Source of the DNA: an uncultured Sphingomonas sp.
Lineage (GTDB): Bacteria > Pseudomonadota > Alphaproteobacteria > Sphingomonadales > Sphingomonadaceae
NCBI RefSeq assembly: GCF_937871615.1
Contig: NZ_CALMPA010000023.1
Span: forward strand, 1 to 64,000
DNA: 64,000 nucleotides
Direction of reading: 5' to 3'
The position numbers were made by a program, and so were the translations under genes. Positions 463 through 46,373 of the stretch are shown here, piece after piece (position 1 is the first letter of the stretch; every line of letters starts with the position of its first letter). The notes below the pieces were generated by a model. It was not told the origin of the DNA and made no database searches. It saw only the letters and a list, made by a program, of their open reading frames with translations.

Positions 463-482
463 GCTATACAATTTCCCAATCT
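463..482 (-). promoter_or_regulatory. Recurrent 20-bp operator, copy 1
   Basis: On the minus strand this reads AGATTGGGAAATTGTATAGC, matching the window-wide element ACATTGGGAAAATACAATGT in its ATTGGGAAA core. It lies in the gap before the RND adaptor gene, where a promoter would be expected. It is nearly identical to the right-hand copy at 24263-24282. Confidence 0.6.
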
Positions 483-539
483 TCACCGCCGTTCAATGGC
501 GTGAGGCTCAATACGCGACAAACCATGAACCTCGCTCGA

Positions 540-557
540 CGGGAACCACGGTTCCCG
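540..557 (-). terminator. Hairpin just after the MscS-type gene
   Basis: CGGGAACC and GGTTCCCG form an 8-bp inverted repeat around a 2-base loop (or a 6-bp stem with a 4-base loop), starting 3 bases beyond the stop codon. No clear U-tract follows, so termination strength is uncertain. Confidence 0.4.
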
Positions 558-559
558 CA

Positions 560-3022
560 TCAAGCGGACCGACCCTGCTCCCGAGGCTCGATCGCTCTTT
601 CGCCGATGCCGACATTGACGACAGGGGATGAGGTCGCAAGCGCGATGTTGGATCGCCTGAGCTCGGGGATGATCTGGAACAGCAGATCGCTCTTGATCCG
701 ATATGCGTCACGCGCGGACGCTACATAGCCGGTCGCGGCAAATTCGAGCGCGCCGTCCCGGACATCGGTGAGATAAACCACGGGCGCTGGCTCATGCGCG
801 AGTTCGGGATGGTCATCCAGCCGCGCTTTCAGCAAATCCCGCACGAGGATCGGGTCGGCGTCGTCCGAAACGCGCAGCACGATCCTCAGCCGGGCGAGCG
901 TACTACCTCTCGTGACGTTTCTGATCGTCTTGGAGATGAGATCGGTGTTCGGCACGATCAGCTTCGACCGATCGGCCATCTCGATCTCGGTGGCGCGCAC
1001 GCTGATCTTTCGGACATCGCCGTCCAGATCGCCGATCGCGATCCAGTCACCGACTTTCACCGGACGTTCGATCAAGAGTATCAGCCCGGACACGAAATTG
1101 CCGATGATCGATTGCAGGCCAAAACCAATGCCCACCGAAAGCGCGCTCGCAAGAAGCGTGATCCTGTCGAGGCTCAGGCCCAGATAGGCCGATGCCATCA
1201 CGATTGCCAGGATTGCGCCAAGATACGTGATGCCGACACCCAGCGCATTCTGCGCTCCGATGTCCATCGAGGTCGTGGGGAGGTAGCGCGCCTCCAGCCA
1301 GCGGCGCACCGCGCGCGTCACCACAAGACCAAGAAGGAACACCAGGAACCCGATCACGATCGTCGCCGGCGAGATCGTGACCTGCCCAAGGTGAAGGATC
1401 AGGTCACTTGTCGACAACCGGCCAAACAGATTCTCAGCCGTCGCTCCAAAAGGGGCCCAGATCGCCAGCCAGGCGAGCAGGAGAAGGCCGAGGCGAGCGC
1501 AGCCCGACAACAACACGCCGCCCTGGCGTAGCGCAGCCGGCGAAAGGCCAAGCGAAGATCGGAGAAAAGCTCCAGTGCGGGTGGCTGGATCGAGCAGGCT
1601 CGGCAGGGCTTCATCGACCAGGATGGTGAAGAGGAAAAGCCAACCCAGCACCGTCGCGATCCAGATCACCTCCCTCAGGATGAAGGAGCCGAACGCGACA
1701 TAGCCGAGCAGCGTCGCGGCCAGGGCACTGAGCAACGCGCCCCAGCTTGCGATCAGCGCGATCGCCCATGGCAATCGTGATGTGCGTGCGACCCGGACGA
1801 TCGGATAATCCGACACGGCCTGCGCCGTGTGCGCAATGGTCAGCAGCGTGCCGCCAATGGTTCCCAGGAGGATAAGGTTTGCAACGCACTGTAGCGCCGA
1901 CGACACCGGGGCGCTGAACCCGAGGGCCGCATCGCCGCCGAGTGTAAAGCCGGTAATGGCAAAGGTTAGCCCGAGCATGTCGGGAAAGCGTCGGATTCGC
2001 GTGACCAATCCGTCGGGGAGAGGCGCCAGGCGCCATGCCGGCCATCGGGGCTGGAGGAGCGCGCGGCCTAGCGAAGCGAACACGGACGCGAACACGACTA
2101 CCCGCGCGAGAATCGCGAGCAATGCGGTGACAATCGGCCTTCCACCAGATAGCGCCCCCAGACAAGTCTGTAGCACCATTCCGACACACGATGCGGCGAG
2201 CATCGCGGCCGCGATGAGGCCAAGCGCAAGGATCGCCCGACGCAGTTGGCTCGGCGCAGATGCCCTTGCCCAGCGCGCGATCACCAATCGCTCAAGCAGC
2301 AGGCGGCCCAAGGCGAGGGCTAGATAGGCAAGCGCGCAAATCAGCGCGCCTGCCGCCAGAGGCATTGCGCCCGTGCCCATCGGGATGGGCGCGCCATCAA
2401 ATTGCGCTTCCGCGCGCTTGGCATCGTGGGGCCACGCCGCCCCGACGCTCGTCCAGAAGCGAAAGTCCAGCGGTGACCGGGTTCGCTGCCATAATTGTTC
2501 GAGAAAGAGATTGCGTCGGCGGGTCTGGAGATAGGTTTCGAGCTGGTCGATCTCGACGCTGATCAGATGAGCCTGTTTGACCTCTGTATCGATCGTCCGG
2601 CGCGCGGTGGTGATTTTCGAACGCTCCTGAGCGATCTCGGGGTCTTCTGCCGGCTGTCCGGGTCCGGGCGGTGGCCCGAGCTCGGCCAAGCGCGCGTCGG
2701 CAAACTTCAGCCGTGGCTCCAACGCCGCTAGCGCGTCGTCGATTTCGCTTCTCACCGCGGGAATCGCGGCAAGTCGGGTTTGAAGATCTGCATCGTCGAT
2801 GCCGCGCAGGTGGGCGCCTGCCCCGATGCGCTGGGCCTCGGCATCGGCCCGGTCGACCTGAAGCGCCAGCGATGTGATTGTCGGCGGAGTCGGCGCGGCA
2901 TGGACCGGCGACAGGGACAAGGTGGTGGCCGTCGTCTGGCCTTGCGCTGCCGAGCCGACCAACAGGCAGGGAATAAGCAAAACCACCGCACGACGCAGCG
3001 AGCTGTCGAGGAATCGTTGCAT
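560..3022 (-). CDS. MscS-family mechanosensitive channel, large form with signal peptide
   Basis: A protein of about 820 residues that should release osmolytes when membrane tension rises. A signal peptide (about residues 1-28) and a helical periplasmic region rich in Ala, Glu and Gln come first. A block of many hydrophobic helices follows (about 200-560). The MscS core sits near residues 570-700: a Gly/Ala-rich pore helix ending in GIGFGLQSIIGNFVSGLILL, then the beta domain with RPVKVGDWI and VPNTDLI. Length and layout resemble the MscK/DUF3772 class more than the 286-residue MscS. ATG 3022 is preferred to the upstream 3049 because it is preceded by a GAAGGG stretch and starts the signal peptide directly. 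Confidence 0.85.
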   Translation of the reverse strand: MQRFLDSSLRRAVVLLIPCLLVGSAAQGQTTATTLSLSPVHAAPTPPTITSLALQVDRADAEAQRIGAGAHLRGIDDADLQTRLAAIPAVRSEIDDALAALEPRLKFADARLAELGPPPGPGQPAEDPEIAQERSKITTARRTIDTEVKQAHLISVEIDQLETYLQTRRRNLFLEQLWQRTRSPLDFRFWTSVGAAWPHDAKRAEAQFDGAPIPMGTGAMPLAAGALICALAYLALALGRLLLERLVIARWARASAPSQLRRAILALGLIAAAMLAASCVGMVLQTCLGALSGGRPIVTALLAILARVVVFASVFASLGRALLQPRWPAWRLAPLPDGLVTRIRRFPDMLGLTFAITGFTLGGDAALGFSAPVSSALQCVANLILLGTIGGTLLTIAHTAQAVSDYPIVRVARTSRLPWAIALIASWGALLSALAATLLGYVAFGSFILREVIWIATVLGWLFLFTILVDEALPSLLDPATRTGAFLRSSLGLSPAALRQGGVLLSGCARLGLLLLAWLAIWAPFGATAENLFGRLSTSDLILHLGQVTISPATIVIGFLVFLLGLVVTRAVRRWLEARYLPTTSMDIGAQNALGVGITYLGAILAIVMASAYLGLSLDRITLLASALSVGIGFGLQSIIGNFVSGLILLIERPVKVGDWIAIGDLDGDVRKISVRATEIEMADRSKLIVPNTDLISKTIRNVTRGSTLARLRIVLRVSDDADPILVRDLLKARLDDHPELAHEPAPVVYLTDVRDGALEFAATGYVASARDAYRIKSDLLFQIIPELRRSNIALATSSPVVNVGIGERAIEPREQGRSA

Positions 3023-3203
3023 GCCCGCGCCCTTCAACCTTCCGGTCATCTCGTCATGCGCGCGGAGATACGGTTACCCCACGATCTGCCGCAAGTTAAG
3101 GTTCTATAATGTTGCGATTTCGGGAGGATGGTTCCACGCGCCGCTACCCATCCAGTGCGGAAGCTTGGTGCCCGACAGGCCCCTGCCTACCTGGTCCTTC
3201 CAT

Positions 3204-6661: not shown

Positions 6662-6693
6662 TAATCTACATTGCAAAAATTCAATATAGATTA
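6662..6693. promoter_or_regulatory. Variant of the recurrent operator inside a TAATCTA/TAGATTA inverted repeat
   Basis: A perfect 7-bp inverted repeat (6662-6668 and 6687-6693) encloses ACATTGCAAAAATTCAATAT (6668-6687), which keeps the ACATTG-8-CAAT spacing of the window-wide element. The left flank AATCTACATT is also found at 35224-35233. The site lies about 200 bases before the DUF2946 gene. The rest of the gap 6465-6808 holds the palindrome at 6509 and the hairpin at 6719, and I see no gene in it. Confidence 0.45.
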
Positions 6694-10870: not shown

Positions 10871-10890
10871 ACATTGGGATTTCTCAATCT
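10871..10890. promoter_or_regulatory. Recurrent 20-bp operator, copy before PAP2 gene
   Basis: ACATTGGGATTTCTCAATCT lies in the divergent gap between the sigma-factor gene and the PAP2 gene, 43 bases before the PAP2 ATG. Half-sites ACATTG and CAATCT match the window-wide consensus in 11 of 12 positions. Confidence 0.6.
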
Positions 10891-14564: not shown

Positions 14565-14584
14565 ATATTGTATTTTCTCAATCT
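14565..14584 (-). promoter_or_regulatory. Recurrent 20-bp operator in the divergent barrel/TBDR gap
   Basis: On the minus strand this reads AGATTGAGAAAATACAATAT, which matches ACATTGGGAAAATACAATGT at 17 of 20 positions. It stands 85 bases before the TBDR ATG at 14670 and could also serve the flavin operon on the other strand. I see no gene in the rest of the 300-base gap. Confidence 0.6.
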
Positions 14585-14669
14585 TCGTTCCGACCCACAA
14601 CCGCAATCGATCTGTCACAGACCTTTACTAGCGCGCCACCAGCCGATTACGGCAAAGGGGCGATATCCG

Positions 14670-16976
14670 ATGAAGTTTGCGTTCTCCGCGCGCCGACTGC
14701 TGGCGGCCACTGCTGTTGCACAGTTCCTGACGATCGCCTCCCCCGCGCTCGCGGCGCCGGGTGAAGAGCCGGCCGCCGATGGGGTCGCGGCCGACGCCGT
14801 GGGCGGGCAGGCGTCGAACGGCATCGCCGAGGGTTCGGACATCGTCGTCACCGGCACCAAGGCGAACGAGATCGCGCCCGTCACCGCCTCGCTCAAGACC
14901 ACGCAGCCGCAGTCGATCGTCTCGCGCTCCTTCATCGAGGATTCGCTGCCCGCGACCGCCGACTTCAACCAGATCGCGCTGATCGCGCCGAGCGTCTCCA
15001 ACTACGGCAACGCCAACGGCACGGGCCTCTCCGAGAGCAAGGCGCAGATCCGCGGCTTCCAGGACGGCGAATATAACGTCACCTACGATGGCGTGCCGTT
15101 CGGCGACACCAACGATCCGACGCACCATTCGAACACCTTCTTCCCCTCGAACACCGTGGAGACGCTGATCGTCGATCGCGGCCCCGGCAACGCCGCGACG
15201 CTGGGTCAGGCGACGTTCGGCGGGAACATGAACCTGTTCAGCCGCGCCACGCGCGAGGACGCCAGCTTCGAGGGCAAGGCGGCTTATGGCAGCTTCAACA
15301 CCTATCTGCTGCGCGGCGTCGCGCAGACCGGCGCGATCGACAAGCTTGGCGGCACGCAAGCCGTGTTCAGCACCCAGTGGATCAAGTCCGACGGCGCGCG
15401 AACCTACAGCCCGTTCCGCTCGTGGAACATCTTCGGCAAAGTGATGGTGCCGCTGGGCGACCGTGCGCGGCTGACGTTCCTCGGCACCTATAACGTCAAC
15501 CGCTTCAACCAGCCGGACAAGGACGGCGCGACGCAGGACCAGATCGCGAAATACGGCAAATATTACAGCCTGAACGACGATCCGAAGAGCCAGGGCTATT
15601 GGGGCTACAACCACACCCGCAAGACCACCGATTTCGAGATCATCAAGTTCGAGACCGATTTCGGCGAGCATTCCGGCTTCGAGAACCGAGCCTATACCTA
15701 CAGCTACGACAATGAGACGCTGAGCGGCAGCGACGCCACCGCCTACGGCCATGCCACGCCCGAGGTGAACACCGTGACGCTCACCCCCGGCTCCAAGACG
15801 ACGGCGCCGGGCGTGCCCGGCTACACCAAGACGAACAAATACCGGATGTACGGCGATATCGCCAAGGTCCACCTCGATTTCGGCTTCGGCACGCTGACGA
15901 CCGGCGCGTGGATCGAATGGTCCGACACCTATCGCCAGCAGCGCGACGTCGATCTGGTGACGATGCTGCCCAATTACGTCGAGAAGAAGGTGACCAATCC
16001 GGCCACCGGCGCGGCCACGCCGCAGGACATCAAATTCGACCAGAACAGCAACACCAACCATACCGAGGAATTCGTCGAGCTGGAGTTGCGGCCGATCCCG
16101 AACCTGAAGATTACGCCGGGCTTCAAGCATGTCGATTTTGGCCGCAGTATCGATGCGGCCTACAACCAGACGACGCGCTACGCCCAGCGGCTGAACAGCA
16201 ACTACAGCGCCAACCTGCCGTTCGCGACGATCAATTATGCGATCACCCCGGCGCTGGCGGTCTATGGGCAATATGCGCGCGGCTTCCTCGCGCCCGCGCT
16301 CAGTGTGCTCTATGTCAATATCCCCGGCCGCTCGACAGTGGAGCCGGAGAAGTCGACCAACTATCAGGCGGGCGTGGTCTATCATGGCGAGCGGCTGAGC
16401 ATCGACGCGGACGTGTACAAGATCGACTTCTCGAACAAGTTCGCATCGATGACGTCGCCCATCCCCGGCGTGGGCACCGTGTGGTTCAACCAGGGCTCGG
16501 TGCAATACAAGGGCATCGAGGGCCAGATCACCTACGCCTTTCCCGGCGGCCTCGCGGTGTTCGCCAACGGCTCGCGTAACTATGCGAAGACGCAAAACGA
16601 CGGCTTCATGGCGCTTCAGGTCGCCAATGCGCCGGAATGGACGGCGGCGGGCGGCGTGCTGTTCAAGCATGGCCCGATGGTCTTCTCGCTGATCGACAAA
16701 TGGACCGGGCGGCAGTGGTTCACTGATCCCAGCCAGATCGCCCCTAGCGACGCGAAGTCGCTCGGCAGCTACAATTTCTACCGCAGCAACGGCTACAATA
16801 GCGCAATCCTTTCCGCACGCTACGATCTGGGCAAGATCCGCTTCGGCGTGGAGGTGAACAACCTGTTCAATTCGCAGCGCGTCACCAATATCAACACCGG
16901 CAAGACGACCGCGTCCGATCAGTATTTCTATCAGGTCGGCCGCACGGTGACGGGCGATATCACGGTGAAGTTCTGA
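14670..16976 (+). CDS. TonB-dependent receptor coupled to an acid phosphatase gene
   Basis: 768 residues with a signal peptide (MKFAFSARRLLAATAVAQ to SPALA), a plug start at SDIVVTGTKANE and a barrel ending GDITVKF. ATG 14670 is chosen because it begins a clean signal peptide after a GGGG-containing ribosome binding site. Long Asn/Asp/Thr-rich loops are typical of sphingomonad receptors and do not reveal the ligand. The stop codon overlaps the next ATG (TGATG), so receptor and phosphatase are made together. That suggests uptake of, or processing linked to, a phosphorylated compound. Confidence 0.88.
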   Translation: MKFAFSARRLLAATAVAQFLTIASPALAAPGEEPAADGVAADAVGGQASNGIAEGSDIVVTGTKANEIAPVTASLKTTQPQSIVSRSFIEDSLPATADFNQIALIAPSVSNYGNANGTGLSESKAQIRGFQDGEYNVTYDGVPFGDTNDPTHHSNTFFPSNTVETLIVDRGPGNAATLGQATFGGNMNLFSRATREDASFEGKAAYGSFNTYLLRGVAQTGAIDKLGGTQAVFSTQWIKSDGARTYSPFRSWNIFGKVMVPLGDRARLTFLGTYNVNRFNQPDKDGATQDQIAKYGKYYSLNDDPKSQGYWGYNHTRKTTDFEIIKFETDFGEHSGFENRAYTYSYDNETLSGSDATAYGHATPEVNTVTLTPGSKTTAPGVPGYTKTNKYRMYGDIAKVHLDFGFGTLTTGAWIEWSDTYRQQRDVDLVTMLPNYVEKKVTNPATGAATPQDIKFDQNSNTNHTEEFVELELRPIPNLKITPGFKHVDFGRSIDAAYNQTTRYAQRLNSNYSANLPFATINYAITPALAVYGQYARGFLAPALSVLYVNIPGRSTVEPEKSTNYQAGVVYHGERLSIDADVYKIDFSNKFASMTSPIPGVGTVWFNQGSVQYKGIEGQITYAFPGGLAVFANGSRNYAKTQNDGFMALQVANAPEWTAAGGVLFKHGPMVFSLIDKWTGRQWFTDPSQIAPSDAKSLGSYNFYRSNGYNSAILSARYDLGKIRFGVEVNNLFNSQRVTNINTGKTTASDQYFYQVGRTVTGDITVKF

Positions 16977-17653
16977 TGCTGCCGCTCCTCGCGCTACTGC
17001 TCGCGGCCGGCGAGGCGAAGCCCGCGCCGCTGCTGACGCAGGCCGATCTCGATCCGGCGCTGGTGCTCCCGCCGCCGCCCGTGCAAGGCAGCGTGCAGGC
17101 GCGCGCGGAAATGGACGAACTGCACATGGTCGAGCGTGCGCGATCGGCGGCGGAGAAGGCCGATGCGGCGCTGGATGGCGAGACGAAGAACGCCACGATC
17201 TTCGCCGTCGCGATCGGCCCGGCGTTCGACCTGAACGCGCTTCCGGCGACCAAGCGGCTGATGAAGCTGGTGCGCGCCAGCGGCAAGGATGCGTCCGATC
17301 GCGGCAAGGATGAGTTCAGGCGCCATCGCCCATGGGATATCGACACGACGCTCCAGACCTGCACGCAGGGGCGCAGCGATCCCCTGTCGAGCTATCCCAG
17401 CGGGCACACCACCATGGCCTTTTCGATGGGCGCGGTGCTCGCGCGGCTGGTCCCGGCGAAGGCGCCCGCGATCATGGCGCGCGCCGCCCGCTACGGGCAG
17501 AGCCGCGTCGTCTGCCTCCAGCATTTCCGCAGCGATGTGACGGCCGGCGAGGCGCTGGGGATGCTGGTGGCGGAACGGCTGATGGCGAAGCCCGATTTCC
17601 GCGCCGCTTATGACGCTGCGGCGGCGGAGCTGGCGGTCGCCGGGATCAGGTGA
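16976..17653 (+). CDS. Class A non-specific acid phosphatase (PhoN-like), periplasmic
   Basis: 225 residues with a short hydrophobic signal (MLPLLALLLAAGEA). The PAP2/PhoN active-site triplet is present: KDEFRRHRPW, YPSGHTT and SRVVCLQHFRSDVTAG. Soluble class A acid phosphatases cleave phosphomonoesters in the periplasm. The gene is coupled to the upstream TBDR (TGATG) and overlaps the convergent PCMT gene by 8 bases. The pairing suggests that phosphate is removed from a ligand brought in by the receptor. Confidence 0.87.
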   Translation: MLPLLALLLAAGEAKPAPLLTQADLDPALVLPPPPVQGSVQARAEMDELHMVERARSAAEKADAALDGETKNATIFAVAIGPAFDLNALPATKRLMKLVRASGKDASDRGKDEFRRHRPWDIDTTLQTCTQGRSDPLSSYPSGHTTMAFSMGAVLARLVPAKAPAIMARAARYGQSRVVCLQHFRSDVTAGEALGMLVAERLMAKPDFRAAYDAAAAELAVAGIR

Positions 17654-18488: not shown

Positions 18489-19831
18489 CGGGCCAGCGGG
18501 AGGCGAAGCACCACCTCAAGCCCCGGCCGCGCGTCGCCGATCGAAAGCGAGCCGCCATGCGCGCGCGCGATCGTTTCCACGAGGTTGAGGCCGAGGCCGT
18601 GGCCGGCTGCCGAGCGTGCGCGATCCAGCCGCACGAACCGCTCGGTGATGCGTCCGCGATCTTCCGCGGGGACGCCCGGCCCGTCGTCGATCACCGCGAG
18701 CCGCGCCATGCCCGCTTCTTCGCGCACCATCAATCCGATGCGCGTGCCGGGCGGCGTGTGCGCCTGCGCGTTGTCGAGCAGGTTGATGAGCGCCTGTGCG
18801 ATCAGTTCCCGGTCCCCGGGCACGATCATTCCGGGTGCGATATCGCTGGCAAGGCTGCGCCCGCCGTCGGCGATCGCCGGCGCATAGCTTTCGCATAGGT
18901 CGGCGGCGAGCGCGCTGACGTCGACCGGCACGAAGCCCTGCCGGATCTCGCCGCTGTCGACCTCGACGATCCGCAGGATCGAGGCAAACAGCGTGAGCAG
19001 AGCATCGCCCTGCTCGACGGCCTCCTCGATCGCGCGTCGCTGCGCGACAGAATCCGCTTCGTCGAGCGCCATCTCCAACCGTCCGCGCAAGCGCGCCAGC
19101 GGCGTGCGCAGGTCATGCGCGACGTCGGCCGACACCTGCCGGAGGTTCTCCAGCAGTCGGCCGATCCGCTCCAGCATCAGGTTGACGACGATGCCGAGCT
19201 GGTCGAACTCGTCTCCGCGATCCGAGACGGGAACGCGACGCGAAAGGTCTCCCTCGACGATGGCCTGCGCCGTGCCGCTCACCCGGGCGAGGCGGCGGCG
19301 CAAGTATCCCCCGAGCAGCACTGCGCCGACGGCGCCGATCACCAGAATCAGCGCGAGAGCGCCGGTGAACAGCGAGAGCACCACATGATCGATCCGCTCG
19401 AGGGCCTGTGAATCGATCCCGACAACCAGGATATGATCGCGATCGAGTACCGTGGTGAGCGCGCGCGCGGCATCGGCGCCCTCGACCGGGTCGTTGAAGA
19501 TGACATTCGAATAACCGGGCTGCGGAAGCGGCAGGTCGAAGTCCCCGACGAGGCGATGGCCTTTCGCGTCGAACAGCGCATAGCCGAACGTGACGACGCC
19601 GTCCGGCGCGCGCCGCTGCCGGATCGCGTCGACCAGATCATCATAGCCCTCGTTGCGATGAACCTGGACGAGATAGGCCGTCGCCTCGGCCAGCGACACG
19701 TCCTGTTGCGCGCGGAACGCCCGGTCTGCGGCGAAATAGACCATCACCCCGAGCAGCACGACCGCGAGCGCGAACGCCCCCGAATAGACGAAGGCAATGC
19801 GATAGGCGGCGCTGCGCCGCCGGTCAGTCAC
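18485..19831 (-). CDS. Two-component sensor histidine kinase
   Basis: 448 residues. There are two transmembrane helices (about 12-34 and 152-174) around a periplasmic sensor of about 115 residues. A HAMP linker follows, then HisKA with His239 in SADVAHDLRTPLARLRG, then the HATPase domain with N box (NLLDNAQAH), DDGPGVP and GHGLGLNLVE. It should phosphorylate the response regulator encoded just upstream. The GTG start overlaps the RR stop by 8 bases. The sensor shows no recognisable domain. The neighbouring PepSY protein could be a sensor partner or a target. Confidence 0.92.
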   Translation of the reverse strand: MTDRRRSAAYRIAFVYSGAFALAVVLLGVMVYFAADRAFRAQQDVSLAEATAYLVQVHRNEGYDDLVDAIRQRRAPDGVVTFGYALFDAKGHRLVGDFDLPLPQPGYSNVIFNDPVEGADAARALTTVLDRDHILVVGIDSQALERIDHVVLSLFTGALALILVIGAVGAVLLGGYLRRRLARVSGTAQAIVEGDLSRRVPVSDRGDEFDQLGIVVNLMLERIGRLLENLRQVSADVAHDLRTPLARLRGRLEMALDEADSVAQRRAIEEAVEQGDALLTLFASILRIVEVDSGEIRQGFVPVDVSALAADLCESYAPAIADGGRSLASDIAPGMIVPGDRELIAQALINLLDNAQAHTPPGTRIGLMVREEAGMARLAVIDDGPGVPAEDRGRITERFVRLDRARSAAGHGLGLNLVETIARAHGGSLSIGDARPGLEVVLRLPLAR

Positions 19832-20501
19832 CGTCGCGCATCCGGTAGCCGACGCCGCGCAACGTCTCGATCGGGTCGGTGTCGAAGCCCTCGTTGAGCT
19901 TGCTGCGCATCCGGCTCAAATGGCTCTCGACAATGTTGGTCTGCGGATCGAAGTGGAATCCCCACACCGTCTCCAGCAGCATCGCCCGCGTGACGACGCG
20001 CCCGGCGTTGCGCATCAACTGCTCGAGGATGCCGAACTCGCGCGGCGGCAACCGGATTTCGCGTCCGCCGCGCCGCACCTCGCGCCGCAGCACGTCGAGC
20101 GTCACGTCGGCGACCTGGAAGCGGGTCTGGACCTCCGACAAAGGCGGACGGCGCAGCAACGCACCGACGCGCGCCGAAAGCTCGGCCAGCGCGAACGGCT
20201 TCACCAGATAATCGTCCGCCCCAGCGCCCAGCCCCGACACGCGGTCGCCGATGCTGCCGAGGGCGGTCAGCATGATGACCGGCAACTTGACCCCGCCCGC
20301 CCGCCAACGCCGAACGATATCGAGTCCGTCCATTTCGGGCAGCATCCGATCGACGATGGCGAGATCGAAACCGTCCTCCCTGCCGGCGCGCAGCGCCTCG
20401 TCGCCGCGACCATAGACTTCCACCGCATGGCCCGCCGCACTCATCCCGCGGACCACCTGCGCTGCGGTTTCCCTATCGTCTTCGGCAAGGAGGATGCGCA
20501 T
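19824..20501 (-). CDS. OmpR-family response regulator
   Basis: 225 residues. The receiver domain has the acidic pair near residue 8, phospho-acceptor Asp51 (FDLAIVDRMLPEMDG) and the YLVKPF lysine. A C-terminal winged helix of the OmpR/PhoB class follows (REFGILEQLMRNAGRVVTR through SHLSRMRSKL). It forms an operon with the kinase, a PepSY protein and a lipoprotein PCMT. Members of this class bind tandem repeats with 10-11 base spacing. The triple GATT repeat at 46341-46373 and the degenerate operator pair before this operon make it a candidate regulator of the window-wide motif. Confidence 0.93.
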   Translation of the reverse strand: MRILLAEDDRETAAQVVRGMSAAGHAVEVYGRGDEALRAGREDGFDLAIVDRMLPEMDGLDIVRRWRAGGVKLPVIMLTALGSIGDRVSGLGAGADDYLVKPFALAELSARVGALLRRPPLSEVQTRFQVADVTLDVLRREVRRGGREIRLPPREFGILEQLMRNAGRVVTRAMLLETVWGFHFDPQTNIVESHLSRMRSKLNEGFDTDPIETLRGVGYRMRDGD

Positions 20502-20788: not shown

Positions 20789-20844
20789 CGTGAACTCTCC
20801 TTCAACGACTCCATCATGGAGCCGGGGAAGGTGTAGGCCCCTGC

Positions 20845-20886: not shown

Positions 20887-20890
20887 AGGC

Positions 20891-21895: not shown

Positions 21896-21958
21896 TCGAG
21901 TCTCCTTCGGGGAGAGCATTGAATGCACCGCGCCGGGGCTTGCCAGAGTCTTTTTGCA

Positions 21959-35227: not shown

Positions 35228-35247
35228 ACATTATATTTATTCAATGA
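35228..35247. promoter_or_regulatory. Variant recurrent operator before the 35 kb receptor
   Basis: ACATTATATTTATTCAATGA keeps the ACATT-N-CAATG spacing, and its left flank AATCTACATT is identical to that at 6663-6672. It lies 111 bases before the TBDR ATG. The rest of the 316-base gap 35042-35357 is AT-rich and shows no other feature. Confidence 0.42.
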
Positions 35248-38030: not shown

Positions 38031-38050
38031 ACATTGGGATAATACAATGT
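38031..38050 (+). promoter_or_regulatory. Recurrent 20-bp operator before the RND efflux operon
   Basis: ACATTGGGATAATACAATGT is a perfect ACATTG/CAATGT inverted repeat with an 8-base spacer, 58 bases before the channel gene. TACAAT inside it, with TTCAAT 18 bases upstream, could form the promoter, so occupancy would block transcription. Confidence 0.65.
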
Positions 38051-38108
38051 CCGTTCGCCGCGAAACGCCTCTAAGGAATGGCGGATCGTGACCGATCGCG
38101 GAGCCTTG

Positions 38109-39470
38109 ATGACAATCCTGCCAAGCAACCGCCCGCTGTTGCTCCCGCCGCTGTTCATCGTGACAGCGCTGCTCGGCGGTTGCGCGCACTATGCGGCTGC
38201 CCCCCTTGCCCAGCGCCCGGCGCTGGCCGCGACGCTGGCTGATCTGCCGCAAGTGCCGGCCCGCCCCTTGAGCGTGGAGGATGTCGTCGCGCTCGCCGTC
38301 GCCCGCGCGCCCGATCTGGTCGCGGCGCGGACGAAGCGCGGCGTGGCGGAGGCGCAGCTCGTGCAGGCTGGCGTGTTGCCCAATCCCTCGCTGACCGGCG
38401 CGTTCCTGCCGCTCGTTTCCGGCGCGGGCACAGTGCCGGCGTGGAATTTCGGGCTCACGCAGGACCTGAAGGCGCTCATCATCCGCGGCCCGAAGCTGCG
38501 CGGCGCGCGCCATGCGGCGGCGCAGGTGCGCGCCGACCTGTTGTGGCAGGAATGGCAGGCCGCCGGACAGGCGCGGCAACTCGCGGTCGACCTGATCCAG
38601 CGCGAACAGACGCGCGCGATGCTGGAGGAAGCGGTGGCGTTGCTCGGTCACCGCTATGAAGTGACGCAGAAGGCGCTCGCCGCCGGCAATGCGACATTGG
38701 TGACCGCCGCCCCAAGCGCGATCGGCTATCAGCAGGCGCGCGTCAGCCTTCAGGCGCTCGACCAGCAGCAATTGCAGGACCGGCACAAGCTCAATGCGCT
38801 GCTCGCGCTCGCGCCCGACGTGGTGGTGCCGCTCGCCGCCACCCCGGACATCGCGCCGCTCGACATCCCCGTCGCGCGCGCCAGCCTCGCCACCCTGCCC
38901 GAGCGGCGGCCGGACCTGCTCGCGCTGCGCTTCGGCTATGCCTCGCAGGACGAGGCTTTGCGCGGGGCGATCCTGTCGCAATTCCCCGATTTCATCCTCG
39001 GCGGCAGCGTGTCAAGCGACAACAGCAAGGTCATCAACGCCGGGCCGAACGCGCAGATCGGCCTGCCGCTGTTCGATCGCAATCAGGGCAATATCGCAAT
39101 CGCCCGCGCCACCCGCGAACAGCTCCGCGCCGAATATGCCGCGCGGCTCGATGCGGCTGTGGGCGAGGTCGGCGCGCTTCTGTCGGAAATGGAGCGGATG
39201 CGCGCGCAGCTTGCGATCGTGGAACGCGATCTGCCCGGCGCGCGGCTCGCCGCCGCCCGCGCCGCCGCCGCCTTCGGCAAGTCCGCGCTCGACGAACGCG
39301 CCTATGTCGATCTCGTCACCAACCGCTTCACCAAGGAACAGGAAGTGTATGCGTTGCAACTGAGCCTGCTCGATCGGCAGGTGGCGATCGAGACATTGCT
39401 CGGCACCGGTCTTCCAGGCGTCGATACGCTCGGCCTAGCGGACCCCGGCACGAAAGGAGCCGCACGGTGA
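38109..39470 (+). CDS. TolC/OprM-type outer-membrane efflux lipoprotein
   Basis: 453 residues with a lipoprotein signal (lipobox LLGGC). Two OEP repeats rich in long Ala/Gln/Glu helices follow. Recognisable parts are LSVEDVVALAVARAPDLVAARTKR at the start of the first, VLPNPSLTGAF after it, and RRPDLLALRFGYASQDEAL with SQFPDFILGGSVS in the second. It forms the channel through the outer membrane for the pump encoded next. ATG 38109 is preferred to GTG 38088 because GGAG lies 6 bases upstream. Its stop overlaps the adaptor's GTG start. Confidence 0.88.
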   Translation: MTILPSNRPLLLPPLFIVTALLGGCAHYAAAPLAQRPALAATLADLPQVPARPLSVEDVVALAVARAPDLVAARTKRGVAEAQLVQAGVLPNPSLTGAFLPLVSGAGTVPAWNFGLTQDLKALIIRGPKLRGARHAAAQVRADLLWQEWQAAGQARQLAVDLIQREQTRAMLEEAVALLGHRYEVTQKALAAGNATLVTAAPSAIGYQQARVSLQALDQQQLQDRHKLNALLALAPDVVVPLAATPDIAPLDIPVARASLATLPERRPDLLALRFGYASQDEALRGAILSQFPDFILGGSVSSDNSKVINAGPNAQIGLPLFDRNQGNIAIARATREQLRAEYAARLDAAVGEVGALLSEMERMRAQLAIVERDLPGARLAAARAAAAFGKSALDERAYVDLVTNRFTKEQEVYALQLSLLDRQVAIETLLGTGLPGVDTLGLADPGTKGAAR

Positions 39471-40507
39471 AATCCGGCACGATCTGGCCTGCCATCGCCA
39501 TCTGCCTGCTGAGCGCGTGTGGATCTTCCGGCTCTCCCGACGATACGGCGGCTGGAACCACGCTGGTGACGGCGATAGCCGCTCGCCAGGGCAGCCTGCC
39601 GCGCGTGATCGAGGCTTATGGTCAGGCGACCCCCGCCGCCAACGGCGTAGCGACACTGAGCGTCCAGCAGCCGGGGCAGGTCGTCGCGATCCCCGCCGTC
39701 GCGGGCACGCGCGTTGCAGCCGGCGTGCCAGTGGTGGTGTTCGCCGTCGCTCCCTCGGCGCGCAGCACCTATCTTCAGGCGGAAGGCGCGGTGAAGGCGG
39801 CGGAATCGCAGCGCGCGACGACCGCCCAGCTGGTCACCCAGCAACTCGCGACGCGTGACCAGCTCGTGCAGGCGGAGAAGGTCGTCACCGACGCGCGCGT
39901 CGCGCTGGCCGCCCTGGCGAAGGAAGGCGCGGGTGCGGCGACGCTCACCCTGCGCGCGCCCTTCGCCGGCATCGTCAGCACCTTGCCCGTCGCGCCGGGC
40001 GACCGCACCCAGCCGGGGCAGGCGCTCGCGACGATTGCGCGGACCGGCGCGATGATCGTGACGGTCGGGGTCGATCCCGCCCGGCGCGCGGACCTGCGCG
40101 TCGGCGCGCCCGTCACGCTCGCGCGGCTCGACGGCGGCGCGGATGTGGCCGGCCATGTCCAGCGCGTCGATGCGATGCTCAACCCGCGCACGCGCCAGAT
40201 CGACGTGGACATCGCCTATCCCGCCGGCGCGATCCTGCCCGGCGAGGCGATGCGCGTGGCGATCGAGACGGGCCGCGCCGAGGGCTGGCTCGTGCCGCAT
40301 CGCGCCGTGGTGGTGGACAGCGACGGCAAGGCCAACGTGTTCCAGATCGCCGGCGGCAAGGCGAAGGCGGTGCCGGTCACGGTCGACGTGGCGCGCCCGG
40401 ACAATGATCTTGTCTCCGGAAAGCTTGATGCCCGCGCGCCGCTGATCGTCGACGGCGCGTATCAGCTCGGCGATGGCGACGCGGTGCGGGCGCAGCGCGG
40501 CCGATGA
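39467..40507 (+). CDS. RND efflux adaptor lipoprotein (membrane-fusion protein)
   Basis: 346 residues starting with GTG at 39467 inside the previous stop (GTGA) and preceded by AAAGGAG. The lipobox is LLSACG. A lipoyl half (VATLSVQQPGQVVAIPAVAG), a short coiled coil, a second lipoyl half (LTLRAPFAGIVSTLPVAPGD), a beta-barrel and a C-terminal VPHRAVVVDSDGKANVFQI segment follow in the usual order. It connects the RND pump to the TolC-like channel. The hairpin is short compared with AcrA. It shows no Met/His-rich metal motif. Confidence 0.9.
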   Translation: MKSGTIWPAIAICLLSACGSSGSPDDTAAGTTLVTAIAARQGSLPRVIEAYGQATPAANGVATLSVQQPGQVVAIPAVAGTRVAAGVPVVVFAVAPSARSTYLQAEGAVKAAESQRATTAQLVTQQLATRDQLVQAEKVVTDARVALAALAKEGAGAATLTLRAPFAGIVSTLPVAPGDRTQPGQALATIARTGAMIVTVGVDPARRADLRVGAPVTLARLDGGADVAGHVQRVDAMLNPRTRQIDVDIAYPAGAILPGEAMRVAIETGRAEGWLVPHRAVVVDSDGKANVFQIAGGKAKAVPVTVDVARPDNDLVSGKLDARAPLIVDGAYQLGDGDAVRAQRGR

Positions 40508-43500
40508 GCTACGCCTCGCTGCTTCAGCGCCAGTCGCGGGCGTTCCTCACTATCGCGGTGGCATTGGCGATCGCGGGCGTGGTCGCGGCTTTCTCGCTGC
40601 CGATCGGGCTGTTTCCGCAGGTCTCCTTCCCGCGCGTGGTGGTGGATATCGACGCCGGATCACGTCCCGCCGACCAGACCGCGCTCACCGTCACCACCCC
40701 GGTGGAGCAGGCGCTCCGCGCGGTGCAGGGGGTGCAGAGCGTGCGCTCGGAGACGACGCGTGGCGCGGCGCAAATCTCGATCGACTTCGGCTGGGGCCGC
40801 GACATGGTGGCGAGCACCCTGCTGGTCGAGGGCGCGATGTCGCGCGCCTTGGGCGCGCTGCCGCCCGGCACAACATACAACGTCCGCCGGATGGACCCGA
40901 CGGTCTTCCCGATCATCTCCTATGCGCTCGAATCGCAGCAGGCGACGCCGACGCAATTGCAGGATTTCGCGCGCTATCAGGTCGTGCCGCTGTTGAGCAG
41001 CATCACCGGCCTCGCCCGCGTCGACGTGCAGGGCGGCGAGACGGCGGAGATACAGGTGCTGGCCGATCCCGCGCGCCTCGCCGCGCACGGGCTGGCGATG
41101 GGCGACCTCTCCACCGCGATCGCCAACGGCAACGTGCTCAGCGCGGTCGGCCGCGTGCAGGATCGCGGGCGGCTGTCGCTGGTGATCGCGGACCGCACGC
41201 TCCCGGGCGCGGCGGCGGTCGGCGAGGTGGTGGTGAAGGCCGATCCGGCCGGCGTGGTGCGCGTGCGCGACGTCGCCACCGTGCAGCAGGGGATCATGCC
41301 GCAATGGCTGCGCGTCAGCGAGGACGGGCGGCCGGCGGTGCTGTTCAACATCTACGAGCAGCCGGACGGCAATGCCGTGCAGATCGCGAAGGCGGTCGAG
41401 CAGAAGCTGGCGCATGTGAAGCTGCCGCCCGGCACACGGCTGGTCTGCTGGTATGATCAGAGCCAGCTCGTCACCGAATCCGTCGCCAGCGTGCGCGATG
41501 CGGTGCTGATCGGGCTGGTCCTTGCCGCTTTCGTCCTTCTGCTGTTCCTCAGGAGCTGGCGCATCACCCTCGTCGCCGCGATCGTCGTGCCGGCGACGCT
41601 GGCGACGACCGTGCTGGTGCTGACGATCTGCGGCATGAGCTTCAACATCATGACATTGGGCGGGATCGCCGCCGCTGTCGGCCTGCTGATCGACGACGTG
41701 ATCGTGATGGTCGAGCATATCGTGCGCCGCGCAGGCGCGGAAGGATCGGGCGGGAAGGCGGCGGTGCTGCCGGCCGCACGCGAGTTCATGGCCCCGCTCA
41801 CCGGATCGAGCCTCGCGACGCTGATCGTGTTCCTCCCCCTCTCCTTCCTGACGGGCGTGACGGGGGCGTTCTCCAAGGCGCTGTCGCTGACGATGGGCGC
41901 GGCGCTGGCGATCTCCTGGGCGATGACCGCCTTCGTCGTCCCCGCGCTCACTGCCCGGCTGGTTGATTTCGACACCACGCACGACCCCGCCGCTTCTGGC
42001 GAGGGGCGCCTTCCACGCTGGCACGATCGAGGACTGGACCTATTGCTGACCCGCCCGTGGCTGCTGGCCGCGCTGGCCGTGCCGCTGCTGATCCTCGGCT
42101 ATGTCGGCTACGCCAACGTCCCGACCGGCTTCATGCCCAAGGTGGACGAGGGCGGATTCGTGATGGACTATTATACCCCGCCCGGCACCTCGCTGATCGA
42201 GACCGAGCGGCGGATGAGCCAGGTCGATGCGCTGCTGCGCGCCGACGCGGATGTGCTGACCTTCTCGCGCCGGCTCGGCACCGGCCTCGGCGGCGATCTC
42301 GGGCAGAGCTATCACGGCGATTACTTCGTCCGGCTGAAGCCCGGTCACGCGCGCGGCACCGAGGAGGTCGCCACGGCCATCGCGCATCAGGTGGACGCGC
42401 GGGTGCCCGGCGTCGCGGTCGAGGTGGCGCAATTGATGGAAGACCTGATCGGCGACCTCACCGCCGTGCCGCAGCCAATCGAGATCAAGTTGTTCGCCGC
42501 CGATCCCACGATCCTCACCGATCAGGCGCGCAAGGTCGCCGCCGCGATCGGCAAGGTTTCCGGTGTGGTCGAGGTGAAGGACGGGGTGCAGCTCGCCGGC
42601 GACGCGATCGACGTGCGGATCGACCCGATCCGCGCCGGATTCGAAGGCGTCACCCCGGCGGAGGTGCAGGCCGCGATCGACACCGCGCTGAACGGCGCGA
42701 TCGCCACCACCCTCCCCCAGCCGACCAAGGCGATCAACGTCCGCGTCCGCCTGCCCGAGGCGATGACGCTCACCCGCGAGGGGCTGGCGGACCTGCCGAT
42801 CCGCGCCGGCGACGGCCATGTCTTCGCGCTGTCGCGCGTCGCCGACCTCCGCCCCGTCACCGGCCAGCCGCAGATCGCGCGCGAGAACCTCGAGCCTATG
42901 GCCGCCGTCACCGGCCGGATCGAGGCGCGCGGGCTGGGTGCAACGATCGCGGATATCAAGGCGGTGCTGGCGCAACCGGGAATGCTCGCGCCGGGCGTCC
43001 GCTACGATCTCGGCGGGCTCTACCAGCAGCAGCAAATCGCCTTCGCCGGGCTGACGCGGGTGTTCCTCGCCGCGCTGATCGCGGAGTTCATCCTGCTGCT
43101 GATCCTCTATCGCCGCTTCGCGACGCCTTTGGTCATCATCGGCTGCTCGCTGCTCTCCACCACGGCCGTGTTCACCGCTTTGTGGCTCACCGGCGTCGAC
43201 CTCAACATCACCGCGCTGATGGGGATGACGATGATCATCGGCATCGGCACCGAGATGGCGATCTTCTACGTCAGCGAATATGAGGAACTGGCGCGCCACA
43301 TGCCGCACCGCGACGCCGCGCGCGAGGCGAGCCGCAACCGCCTGCGCCCGATCACCATGACGACGCTCGCCGCGATCCTCACCCTGCTGCCGCTCGCGCT
43401 GGCGATCGGCTCGGGCGCGGGCATCCAGCAGCCGCTGGCGATCGCGATCATCGCAGGCCTGCTGCTGCAATATCCGCTCGTGCTGCTTGCCATGCCGGTA

Positions 43501-43548
43501 TTGATCGGGCTGATCGCCACGCGGGACGATACCTCCCTAACCGCATGA
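40504..43548 (+). CDS. RND-family efflux pump permease
   Basis: 1014 residues with twelve predicted helices and two large periplasmic loops. Helix 4 carries GLLIDDVIVMVEHI, the paired Asp of proton-coupled HAE-type pumps. FLPLSFLTGVTGAFSKAL and the second-half FAGLTRVFLAAL and MIIGIGTEMAIFYV segments fit the AcrB/MmpL architecture. It is slightly short for AcrB (about 1050) and lacks the Met-rich motifs of CusA, so an organic substrate is more likely than copper or silver. The ATG overlaps the adaptor stop (ATGA). The three genes form one operon under the operator at 38031. Confidence 0.9.
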   Translation: MSYASLLQRQSRAFLTIAVALAIAGVVAAFSLPIGLFPQVSFPRVVVDIDAGSRPADQTALTVTTPVEQALRAVQGVQSVRSETTRGAAQISIDFGWGRDMVASTLLVEGAMSRALGALPPGTTYNVRRMDPTVFPIISYALESQQATPTQLQDFARYQVVPLLSSITGLARVDVQGGETAEIQVLADPARLAAHGLAMGDLSTAIANGNVLSAVGRVQDRGRLSLVIADRTLPGAAAVGEVVVKADPAGVVRVRDVATVQQGIMPQWLRVSEDGRPAVLFNIYEQPDGNAVQIAKAVEQKLAHVKLPPGTRLVCWYDQSQLVTESVASVRDAVLIGLVLAAFVLLLFLRSWRITLVAAIVVPATLATTVLVLTICGMSFNIMTLGGIAAAVGLLIDDVIVMVEHIVRRAGAEGSGGKAAVLPAAREFMAPLTGSSLATLIVFLPLSFLTGVTGAFSKALSLTMGAALAISWAMTAFVVPALTARLVDFDTTHDPAASGEGRLPRWHDRGLDLLLTRPWLLAALAVPLLILGYVGYANVPTGFMPKVDEGGFVMDYYTPPGTSLIETERRMSQVDALLRADADVLTFSRRLGTGLGGDLGQSYHGDYFVRLKPGHARGTEEVATAIAHQVDARVPGVAVEVAQLMEDLIGDLTAVPQPIEIKLFAADPTILTDQARKVAAAIGKVSGVVEVKDGVQLAGDAIDVRIDPIRAGFEGVTPAEVQAAIDTALNGAIATTLPQPTKAINVRVRLPEAMTLTREGLADLPIRAGDGHVFALSRVADLRPVTGQPQIARENLEPMAAVTGRIEARGLGATIADIKAVLAQPGMLAPGVRYDLGGLYQQQQIAFAGLTRVFLAALIAEFILLLILYRRFATPLVIIGCSLLSTTAVFTALWLTGVDLNITALMGMTMIIGIGTEMAIFYVSEYEELARHMPHRDAAREASRNRLRPITMTTLAAILTLLPLALAIGSGAGIQQPLAIAIIAGLLLQYPLVLLAMPVLIGLIATRDDTSLTA

Positions 43549-43588: not shown

Positions 43589-43608
43589 ACATTGCGAAAT
43601 TACAATGA
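43589..43608 (+). promoter_or_regulatory. Recurrent 20-bp operator before the glycine-zipper gene
   Basis: ACATTGCGAAATTACAATGA matches the window-wide element with half-sites ACATTG and CAATGA. It lies between the pump gene and the glycine-zipper gene, 97 bases before the latter's ATG. Confidence 0.6.
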
Positions 43609-45367: not shown

Positions 45368-45401
45368 GGCAAAGCCTTTTGCGAGTCGCTCTCAGCACTA
45401 A

Positions 45402-45418
45402 TTGCGAATAGTTCGCAA
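45402..45418. promoter_or_regulatory. Perfect 17-bp palindrome in a divergent gap
   Basis: TTGCGAA-TAG-TTCGCAA is a perfect 7-bp inverted repeat with a 3-base spacer. It is placed between the unknown-HU pair (minus) and the methyltransferase gene (plus, 49 bases away). Such a compact dyad is typical for a dimeric repressor, and no regulator gene is adjacent. Confidence 0.55.
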
Positions 45419-45466
45419 ATATCGTATCCCGGATCAAGCCGCGTTTCGCGGATTTGGAGGATCGCG

Positions 45467-46150
45467 ATGGCCGACAAGCAGCGTTCGATGATGACCAGCC
45501 TGCCCGCGGTAGCGACCATGCTCCTGGGAATCGCCTTGCTGGTCCTCGCCGCATTGCGCTGGCGCGAGAATGGCTGGGGCTCCCTGGTCTGGCTGTTGGT
45601 CATGGTCGCGATGTTCGTGATCCGCACCCCGCACTCGCTGCGCAATCGCGCCAATGTTGTCGTCGATGCGCGCAAGGACGGCATGGAGATCGCGCTGCTG
45701 GCGGGCATGTTCCTCGCCATGATGGTGCTGCCGCTCCTCTATCTCGCGCTCGGCCTGTTCCGCTTCGCCGATTACGACATGCCGGAATGGGCGACGTGGA
45801 TCGGGGCGCTGGCGCAAATCCCCTATCTCTGGCTGTTCTGGCGCAGCCATGCCGATCTCGGCCGCAACTGGTCTCCGGGGCTGGAGGTGCGGGAGGATCA
45901 TGCGCTGGTGACGAACGGCGTCTATGGTTGCATCCGCAACTCGATGTATGCCGCCATCTGGATTTCGGCGCTGGCGCAGCCGCTGCTCATCCACAACTGG
46001 ATCGCGGGGTTCCTCGTCGTTCCCGCTTTCGCCGCCATGTGGTTCATCCGCGTGCCCAATGAGGAAGCGATGATGCGCGCCCGTTTCGGCGCGGCATGGG
46101 ATGCTTATTGCGCTCGGGCCGGAAGGCTGTTCCCGAAACGCCCGAAATAA
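45467..46150 (+). CDS. Isoprenylcysteine-carboxyl-methyltransferase-like membrane protein
   Basis: 227 residues with about five hydrophobic helices. The C-terminal half has the ICMT/PEMT signature: LGRNWSPGLEVREDHALVTN, then GVYGCIRNSMYAAIWI, and the terminal VPNEEAMMRARFGAAWDAYCARAGRLFP, cited here as NEEAMMRARFGAAWDAYC. Bacterial members methylate lipids or small molecules using SAM, and the substrate is unknown. GGAGG lies 6 bases before ATG 45467. The palindrome at 45402 probably controls it. Confidence 0.8.
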   Translation: MADKQRSMMTSLPAVATMLLGIALLVLAALRWRENGWGSLVWLLVMVAMFVIRTPHSLRNRANVVVDARKDGMEIALLAGMFLAMMVLPLLYLALGLFRFADYDMPEWATWIGALAQIPYLWLFWRSHADLGRNWSPGLEVREDHALVTNGVYGCIRNSMYAAIWISALAQPLLIHNWIAGFLVVPAFAAMWFIRVPNEEAMMRARFGAAWDAYCARAGRLFPKRPK

Positions 46151-46339
46151 CCGTCATCTACTTCGCGAAGTGCCGTGGAAGGTTGAATCGCAGGCGCGCG
46201 GGGCGCTGCGGCCGGCTACCTCGTGCCACGTCTTTATCGCATCGGCTGCCCGGATCGATGCTCATCGTCCGGAACGCGGGCTTCCGATCGCGCGAATCAA
46301 TATCCCCCACAGCGCTCCCCCATCTGACCGACGGCGGTT

Positions 46340-46373
46340 AGATTGGGATAAGATTGGGATTTGATTACATCTG
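46340..46373 (+). promoter_or_regulatory. Recurrent operator as a triple 11-bp direct repeat before the 46 kb receptor
   Basis: GATTGGGATAA (46341-46351), GATTGGGATTT (46352-46362) and GATTACATCTG (46363-46373) are exact 11-base steps. The 20-mer AGATTGGGATTTGATTACAT (46351-46370) matches the window-wide element. Helical-turn spacing suits OmpR-class regulators. A TTGCAA pair follows at 46421 and 46432, just before the ribosome binding site. The 303-base gap 46151-46453 shows nothing else. Confidence 0.6.

What the first reader, a model, noticed from the sequence alone, without database searches (positions are those of the whole stretch)
463..46370. A 20-bp near-palindrome recurs in about ten gaps: a clustered, undescribed regulon
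ACATTGGGAAAATACAATGT or close variants occur at 463, 6668, 10871, 14565, 21959, 24241, 24263, 35228, 38031, 43589 and 46351. All are intergenic and most lie 40-110 bases before a start codon. Targets would include RND efflux, four TBDR units, phosphatases, a propeller, MlaA-PCMT and a glycine-zipper protein. The element is AT-rich in a GC-rich genome, yet the spacing of its arms is constant. I know of no regulator with this site.
Basis: partly seen in the sequence, partly recalled or inferred. Interest (0 to 1): 0.85.

Follow-up and report, generated by a model that had tools for sequence, protein, structure and literature searches.

The report
Operator of an uncharacterised sphingomonad response regulator
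A short DNA sign, repeated in front of about ten membrane-transport and phosphatase operons of a sphingomonad bacterium, is most probably the landing site of a nearby two-component response regulator, because in related species the sign and the regulator tend to occur together.

Summary
A whole-genome model search returns 8 hits, all 8 on this contig. The most likely trans factor is the OmpR-family response regulator at 19824-20501 with its kinase. The evidence: (1) its 79%-identical paralogue has, 90 bp upstream, the same 20-mer as the RND operon here; (2) a matrix from this genome alone finds sites in 30 of 34 orthologous regulator loci, 52 non-coding and 0 coding hits, and in 0 of 8 loci of a 50-51% identical regulator; (3) orthologues of one TonB receptor carry the site in 16 of 18 genomes with a regulator of at least 61% identity and in 0 of 9 without. 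The receptor/acid-phosphatase promoter also holds a Pho-box-like repeat that persists without the regulator. The closest known system is Caulobacter UzcRS (half-site CATTAC; U/Zn/Cu); here the half-site is mainly ATTGGGA. The signal is unknown; metal, cationic or phosphate-linked envelope stress is inferred. Binding is not shown.

The parts
463..482 (-). site AGATTGGGAAATTGTATAGC; 67 bp before the start called for a minus-strand gene (1-396, cut by the contig end) whose product reads like a lipoprotein RND adaptor (by eye; no Pfam or NCBIfam match)
   Evidence: (score 25.4)
6668..6687 (+). site ACATTGCAAAAATTCAATAT (weaker copy at 6688-6707); upstream of a small minus-strand ORF and the TonB receptor 3777-5912
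   Evidence: (25.7; 15.0)
10871..10890 (-). site between ECF sigma/FecR/TonB-receptor operon (minus) and PAP2 phosphatase 10933-11652 (plus)
   Evidence: 27.4
14565..14584 (-). site 85 bp before TonB receptor (called start 14670)-PAP2 acid phosphatase operon; on the other side the DUF6662/FMN_bind/ApbE genes
   Evidence: (31.6)
14601..14618 (+). Pho-box-like tandem repeat CCGCAATCGATCTGTCAC between the site and the start codon
   Evidence: 11 of 14 positions; consensus recalled
21959..21978 (+). site (perfect N8 palindrome) between YncE-like propeller/PepSY/RR/HK genes (minus) and MlaA-PCMT (plus)
   Evidence: 36.5
24241..24260 (+). site with direct second half, paired with 24263
   Evidence: 19.1
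24263..24282 (-). site CATTGGGAAATTGTATAGG, before ORF 24450-25079 and siderophore-type TonB receptor 25164-27308
   Evidence: (19.1)
   Evidence: 20.5
35228..35247 (-). site before TonB receptor 35373-37910 (called start)
   Evidence: 21.2; sites before the receptor's relatives in other genomes
38031..38050 (+). site (perfect N8 palindrome), 58 bp before the called start (38109) of the RND operon; identical 20-mer at contig position 96358 before the paralogous RND operon
   Evidence: 35.4
43589..43608 (+). site 97 bp before glycine-zipper gene 43706-44176
   Evidence: 29.7
46351..46370 (+). site with 11-bp direct repeats (weak copy at 46340) before siderophore-type TonB receptor 46454-48577
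   Evidence: (16.3; 11.7)
19824..20501 (-). OmpR-family response regulator, proposed trans factor
   Evidence: PF00072, PF00486
18485..19831 (-). sensor histidine kinase of the pair
   Evidence: (nearest TIGR01386, below its cut-off)
20513..20887 (-). PepSY-domain protein
20891..21928 (-). YncE-like beta-propeller protein
38088..43548 (+). RND efflux operon (OEP, adaptor, pump), proposed main target
14670..17653 (+). TonB receptor and PAP2 acid phosphatase, proposed target under dual control

Best explanation
The element is the operator of the two-component system encoded in the cluster (response regulator 19824-20501, kinase 18485-19831) and of its paralogue at contig position 94252-96268. 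The regulator, an OmpR/CusR-type winged-helix protein, is inferred to bind as a dimer to one strong half-site ATTGGGA and a second, degenerate, usually inverted half ten bases on. It most likely activates transcription from just upstream of, or overlapping, the -35 region of RND efflux, TonB-receptor, phosphatase, PepSY and propeller operons when the kinase is switched on by an envelope signal (metal, cationic compound or phosphate-related). Shown by computation: the sites, their clustering, their non-coding position, their co-occurrence with the regulator, and narrow spacing to the target genes. Inferred: binding, dimer geometry, activation, signal.
For: A matrix from the 12 sites of this genome, at score >16, finds 52 non-coding hits (129 kb) and 0 coding hits (638 kb) in 34 orthologous regulator loci. 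30 of 34 loci are positive (24 of 28 without the 6 loci that the motif itself had led to), against 0.36 per 100 kb in shuffled non-coding DNA (recounted). 0 of 8 loci of a different, 50-51% identical regulator are positive at >16. In reverse, of 250 genus genomes the strict core occurs in 6 besides this one (reversed control 0 in all 250), and all 6 places lie by a 65-81% identical regulator with RND and propeller or PepSY genes. TonB-receptor orthologues: site in 16 of 18 genomes with a regulator of at least 61% identity and 0 of 9 without, Fisher P 1.2e-5; in 4 positives (G353, G457, G443, G300) receptor and regulator are on different contigs. Two RR/HK/RND sets in this genome; the RND promoters share an identical 20-mer. 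The site tracks the regulator tree: 29 of 38 rows of its clade, 17 changes over 106 rows against 33.6 shuffled. Recognition-helix triplet ESH/ETH/DSH: site in 40 of 65 rows; DVH/DAH/DQH: 3 of 29. Spacing to called starts: receptor 85-98 bp in 9 of 11, propeller-matched genes 63-89 in 20 of 25, OEP 58-111 in 10 of 13.
Against: No binding or expression data. The orthologous loci were chosen by the regulator, so kinase, PepSY or propeller genes co-occur too (none of these showed a DNA-binding domain). 4 of 34 regulator loci have no site over 16 (best 11.3, 11.3, 12.8 and 11.5, the last inside a called gene), and 2 of 18 receptor genes lack one (G332 9.7, G334 12.5). Three of the 11 control loci also have sites, at regulators of 52-58% identity (L223, L229, L231); the L231 hit is the same site as one already counted in G365. 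Other label changes on the tree show sites at some distant regulators and none at some close ones. Several genomes are near copies of each other (G353/G457, G423/G462, L196/L197, L200/L201, L215/L217), so counts are not independent events, and 9 of the 16 positive receptor genes lie in loci already seen. Searches scored only part of their first-look candidates (10 per genome, 150 of 363 for this genome). Sites 463, 6668, 43589 and 46351 were not checked in other species one by one.
Confidence: 0.83

Rival explanations
1. The sites belong to another local transcription factor, such as the ECF sigma factor at 10125-10787, or to a one-component repressor.
For: An ECF/FecR/TonB-receptor set lies in the window and next to one site, and ECF relatives occur in 5 of 34 orthologous loci.
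Against: 29 of 34 loci have no ECF relative at the same cut-off, whereas the site follows the OmpR regulator. A sigma factor's promoter has a fixed direction, but these sites lie both ways round relative to their genes and serve divergent pairs. One-component regulators were not searched for systematically.
Confidence: 0.06
2. The sites are PhoB (phosphate) operators.
For: Phosphatases and a PstS-like protein are in the cluster, and a Pho-box-like repeat stands beside the site in receptor promoters.
Against: The Pho-box-like repeat is a different element next to the site. It stays in receptor promoters of genomes without the regulator (mean 10.3 of 14 matched in 9, against 10.4 in 19 with it; shuffled 8.2, G392 left out), while no site over 16 is there in 9 of 9. 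OEP, PepSY and RR promoters do not exceed shuffles (8.2, 8.0, 8.0); propeller promoters hardly do (8.8 against 8.3).
Confidence: 0.03
3. The element is a small repeated or mobile palindrome without regulatory function.
For: Many copies in one contig, two of them identical.
Against: No coding hits at >16, narrow distance to starts, similarity confined to about 20 bp, presence in another genus and on a Phenylobacterium and a Caulobacter contig.
Confidence: 0.02
4. The regulator binds here but represses or only tunes the targets, and the second regulator copy (95594-96268) is the main user of the sites.
For: Two 79% identical regulators in one genome and identical sites. Sites upstream of a Pho-box-like promoter could interfere with PhoB instead of helping.
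Against: In OEP promoters the site lies 16-19 bp before a -10-like element (read by eye), where activators of this family usually bind (recalled). The review of Caulobacter UzcR describes it as mainly an activator.
Confidence: 0.2

Closest known systems
UzcRS of Caulobacter crescentus (U/Zn/Cu-responsive two-component system)
   Same: DNA-binding response regulator with a kinase; targets include an RND pump, TonB receptors and secreted proteins; operator described as an 18-bp partly palindromic motif with half-sites CATTAC-N6-TTAA (review passages, PMC8963506; passages and section 13 of PMC12864828). The CATT...AATG arms and spacing seen here look alike. A Caulobacter relative (57% identical) has CATTACGTATCCGTAATG upstream.
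   Different: Half-site here is (C/G)ATTGGGA instead of CATTAC. UzcR is global (57 ChIP regions in the review), whereas hits here lie mostly by the regulator. The C. crescentus protein sequence could not be fetched, so orthology was not tested.
UrpRS of Caulobacter crescentus
   Same: Uranium-responsive system that controls a phytase, thus linking metal and phosphate (review passages); here phosphatases are among the targets.
CusRS/CopRS/SilRS/CzcRS heavy-metal systems
   Same: Best NCBIfam match of the regulator is TIGR01387 and of the kinase TIGR01386; an RND operon with gene order OEP-adaptor-pump lies nearby.
   Different: Both scores are below the curated cut-offs (209 vs 279; 177 vs 293 bits), and the pump fits multidrug models better than CusA/CzcA (497 vs 394 bits).
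PhoB regulon
   Same: Receptor/acid-phosphatase promoter has a Pho-box-like repeat.
   Different: Different element, found with or without the regulator studied.

Membership tests
OmpR/PhoB-family response regulators | receiver domain plus C-terminal winged helix | tested here: met
   PF00072 and PF00486 above cut-off
OmpR/PhoB-family response regulators | cognate kinase encoded next to it | tested here: met
   HisKA/HATPase/HAMP protein 18485-19831; pairing inferred from adjacency
heavy-metal (CusR/CopR/SilR) subfamily TIGR01387 | score over the curated cut-off | tested here: not met
   209 bits against 279; none of 45 matches in the genome over the cut-off
UzcR regulon | operator with CATTAC-N6-TTAA half-sites | tested here: not met
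   consensus is about ATTGGGAWWWTAYAAT; similar geometry only
UzcR regulon | regulator orthologous to CCNA_02842 | not testable with these tools
UzcR regulon | induced by U, Zn, Cu | not testable with these tools
   needs expression data
PhoB regulon (receptor/acid phosphatase operon only) | tandem 11-bp CTGTCAT-type repeats upstream (consensus recalled) | tested here: inconclusive
   mean best match 10.6 of 14 in 10 promoters, shuffled 8.1 sd 0.8; imperfect repeats

The most novel reading that the evidence does not exclude
A mobile envelope-defence module (regulator, kinase, PepSY sensor partner, propeller, RND pump) that spreads among sphingomonads and, wherever it lands, recruits resident phosphate-starvation receptor/phosphatase promoters by gaining its operator next to an older Pho box, so that nutrient uptake answers to both phosphate and a metal or envelope signal.
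Probability: 0.35. Interest if true: 0.7.

Novelty: new variant of a known kind. Interest (0 to 1): 0.57.

Why it matters
It gives a sequence-defined operator and a named candidate regulator for a two-component system that recurs in sphingomonads, has look-alikes in Caulobacteraceae, and is undescribed in the paper listings searched. It ties RND efflux, TonB receptors and phosphatases to one switch. The receptor promoter, with a constant Pho-box-like part and an operator that is found only where the regulator is, offers a clean natural case of promoter rewiring that can be tested directly.

Tried and rejected
Blind counting of spaced 4-mer pairs over whole 20-kb loci was too noisy: its background came from two random replicates, and the top pairs were not the motif. 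So no truly blind motif discovery supports the consensus. The first gene callers missed many genes and were replaced, which still leaves some starts uncertain. Strict upstream palindromes next to each regulator were found in only 12 of 176 rows, because the site usually lies before the propeller, PepSY or pump gene. A lanthanide reading (PepSY, TonB receptor) was considered: two literature searches (listings seen) gave nothing that bears on it. Searches for a prior description of the site or system (26, 0 and 5 papers, listings only, 15 of the 26 shown) listed none by title or abstract start; subscription papers, including Park 2017, are not held, so absence in print is not shown. The Caulobacter genus search held only one genome, so C. 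crescentus UzcR could not be compared.

Rows dropped. Model R1 used 46 of 55 cross-species sites: L223 (3), L206, G213_37511, L198_17893, G362_20261 and two duplicates were left out. The matrix used 52 of 55 (L223 left out). In the TonB-receptor test 30 of 31 orthologues had loci (G393 had none); G043 is cut by its contig end, G392 has only 74 bp upstream, and this genome's own copy is not counted, leaving 27 (the first count, still held G392: 0 of 10, P 5e-6). Regulator identities for that test were typed in from the list. Of the 9 genomes without the site, G423, G462, G279 and G370 have best relatives of 52-58%; G339, G414 and G477 have a best E-value of 2.4e-66 or worse with no identity shown; G390 and G487 are not among the genomes listed with a match at 1e-60.
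Full report
WHAT WAS CHECKED. The window is the first 64 kb of a 225,698-bp contig (C23) of a 3.99-Mb genome in 71 contigs. A genome of its genus group has a contig whose length and regulator coordinates equal those of Sphingomonas sp. FARSPH plasmid NZ_CP029986.1, so the genus is taken to be Sphingomonas (inference). All 11 listed sites are present and lie outside called genes.

IS IT MORE THAN CHANCE? ACATTG-N8-CAATGT with at most one mismatch: 9 places in the genome, 6 on this contig (which is 5.7% of the genome), 5 of them in the window. CATTR-N8-YAATG: 7 places in the genome, 5 on this contig; reversed control 1. A sequence model made from 46 sites of other genomes returned 8 hits at E up to 10 in the whole genome: 21958, 38030, 96357, 43588, 10870, 14565, 464 and 24266, all on this contig (150 of 363 first-look candidates were scored). 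It missed 6668, 24241, 35228 and 46351 at that threshold. In the same of 15 other genomes gave 18 hits. 16 of these lie within about 21 kb of a regulator relative, one is the receptor promoter of G353 on another contig, and one (G362:C73) was not examined. The six genomes without hits were G058, G320, G001, G045, G491 and G492. G491 and G492 do hold sites beside a regulator that the plain matrix scores at 24.9 and 22.9, so the model is not exhaustive. A plain matrix from 52 such sites ranks the 11 sites plus 35208 and 96358 first to thirteenth in the contig, all non-coding. Because the foreign sites had been picked with a matrix from this genome, this step is partly circular; it does suggest that the genome has no comparable cluster elsewhere.

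ANATOMY. Aligned sites read (A)(C/G)ATTGGGAAAATAYAAT(G/C)T. The left half ATTGGGA is nearly fixed (positions T4, T5 and A16 are the same in all 55 foreign sites), while the right half is looser (ACAAT, TATAAT, GTATAG, GTAAC). Some sites are inverted repeats, others direct repeats with 11-bp spacing. In OEP promoters a -10-like GCTAANGC or CTCTA stands 16-19 bp after the site (by eye). In TonB-receptor/acid-phosphatase promoters a Pho-box-like repeat lies between the site and the start.

WHO BINDS IT? The window holds a response regulator, a kinase, a PepSY protein and a propeller. The same contig holds a second regulator/kinase pair (79 and 73% identical) next to a second RND operon (pump 90% identical). 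The gap between them holds the identical 20-mer, 90 bp from the regulator's start. The 250-genome pattern search found the strict core in 6 other genomes, none in the reversed control. All 6 places lie by a 65-81% identical regulator with kinase and RND genes. Then 27 more regulator loci (61-76% identical) and 11 loci of other regulators (50-58%) were fetched. With a matrix from this genome's 12 sites at score >16: 52 non-coding hits in 129 kb, 0 coding in 638 kb, 30 of 34 orthologous loci (24 of 28 when the six found by motif are left out); shuffled non-coding DNA gives 0.36 per 100 kb. Controls: 3 of 11 loci had sites, all with regulators of 52-58% identity. L229 has a propeller and a receptor like the window's; L231 overlaps the G365 region, and its hit is a site already counted there; L223 has three sites by a TonB receptor. 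0 of the 8 loci with a 50-51% regulator had one. The four negative orthologous loci have best scores of 11.3, 11.3, 12.8 and 11.5, the last inside a called gene.

A TEST CHOSEN BY A TARGET, NOT BY THE REGULATOR. Orthologues of the TonB receptor at 14.7 kb occur in 31 of 295 genus genomes. Of 27 evaluable foreign ones, the site stands upstream in 16 of 18 with a regulator of at least 61% identity and in 0 of 9 with a lesser relative or none listed (Fisher P 1.2e-5). In G353, G457, G443 and G300 receptor and regulator are on different contigs of draft assemblies. The exceptions are G332 (9.7) and G334 (12.5); among those without, G423 and G462 (regulator 58%) have 13.5, below the threshold. Nine of the 16 positives lie in loci already seen; seven are new. 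The Pho-box-like repeat is present in both groups (10.4 of 14 matched in 19, this genome included; 10.3 in 9; shuffled 8.2, G392 left out). The two inputs are therefore separable: the promoter core is shared, the operator goes with the regulator. The genomes are related, so the P value is only indicative.

TREE AND HELIX. In a tree of 106 regulators the window's clade (38 rows, support 100/100) has the site within 2.2 kb in 29 rows. Over the tree the label needs 17 changes against 33.6 in shuffles. The recognition-helix triplet is ESH, ETH or DSH in 65 rows (40 with site), DVH, DAH or DQH in 29 (3 with site), and not found in 12 (0 with site).

WIDER REACH. Of 80 named loci, 14 were scanned. 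A Phenylobacterium contig (JANXXA010000179.1) has PAP2-PepSY-RR-HK-propeller-OEP-adaptor-RND with AGATTGGCAAATCCCAATGT (22.9) before the propeller gene. Caulobacter sp. CCUG 60055 has ACATTGAGATTTCTCAATAT (24.9) upstream of a 54% regulator. Acidocella aromatica has a weak ACATTGTCAACAATTAATGT (14.5, under the threshold) between a 53% regulator and an RND operon with a 57% pump. The other 11 gave at most 15.4, except 18.9 at a place inside the kinase match of an AT-rich contig (L036).

MECHANISM. Most likely: an envelope signal activates the kinase; the phosphorylated regulator dimerises on ATTGGGA plus the second half and recruits RNA polymerase at pump, receptor, PepSY, propeller and phosphatase promoters. 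The sign is inferred from the position of the site. The signal is inferred from target types (two PAP2 phosphatases, siderophore-type TonB receptors, RND pump, PepSY) and from the nearest known systems, UzcRS and UrpRS of Caulobacter. For these I read passages of a review (PMC8963506), passages and section 13 of PMC12864828, and passages of PMC11870441 and PMC10133563.

COMPARISON AND NOVELTY. It works like UzcR-type regulation, with the same kinds of targets and a CATT...AATG operator layout, but the half-site differs from the published CATTAC. The family models for heavy-metal regulators are not reached. The listings showed no description of this site or system; most subscription papers are not held. 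Verdict: a real regulon, new variant of a known kind.

Noticed in passing
contig C23 94252-101864 (L011): A second regulator/kinase/RND set (79, 73 and 90% identical) outside the window, with CRISPR-Cas genes that look like type I-C (Cas1, Cas7, Csd1, Cas5, Cas3) directly beside it at about 86.4-94.2 kb.
   Followed up: partly
14601-14618 and orthologous promoters: Pho-box-like tandem repeat in the TonB-receptor/acid-phosphatase promoter, kept in genomes without the regulator.
   Followed up: partly
46340-46370: Three 11-bp direct repeats of the half-site (GATTGGGATAA GATTGGGATTT GATTACAT) instead of an inverted pair.
   Followed up: no
L118, L132, L135: More distant regulators (48-51% identical) in other genera have nearly symmetric palindromes such as ATTGGGAATTCCCAAT upstream.
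   Followed up: no
G491:C1:308228-308245: Perfect palindrome CATTACGTATCCGTAATG about 83 bp before a 57% identical regulator in a Caulobacter genome, resembling the UzcR half-site.
   Followed up: partly
G362:C73:4617 and G373:C2:215245: Model hits away from (or about 20 kb from) the regulator locus, possible further targets.
   Followed up: no
51369-56326: ImuB-like polymerase and DNA polymerase III alpha (DnaE2-like) gene pair in the window.
   Followed up: no
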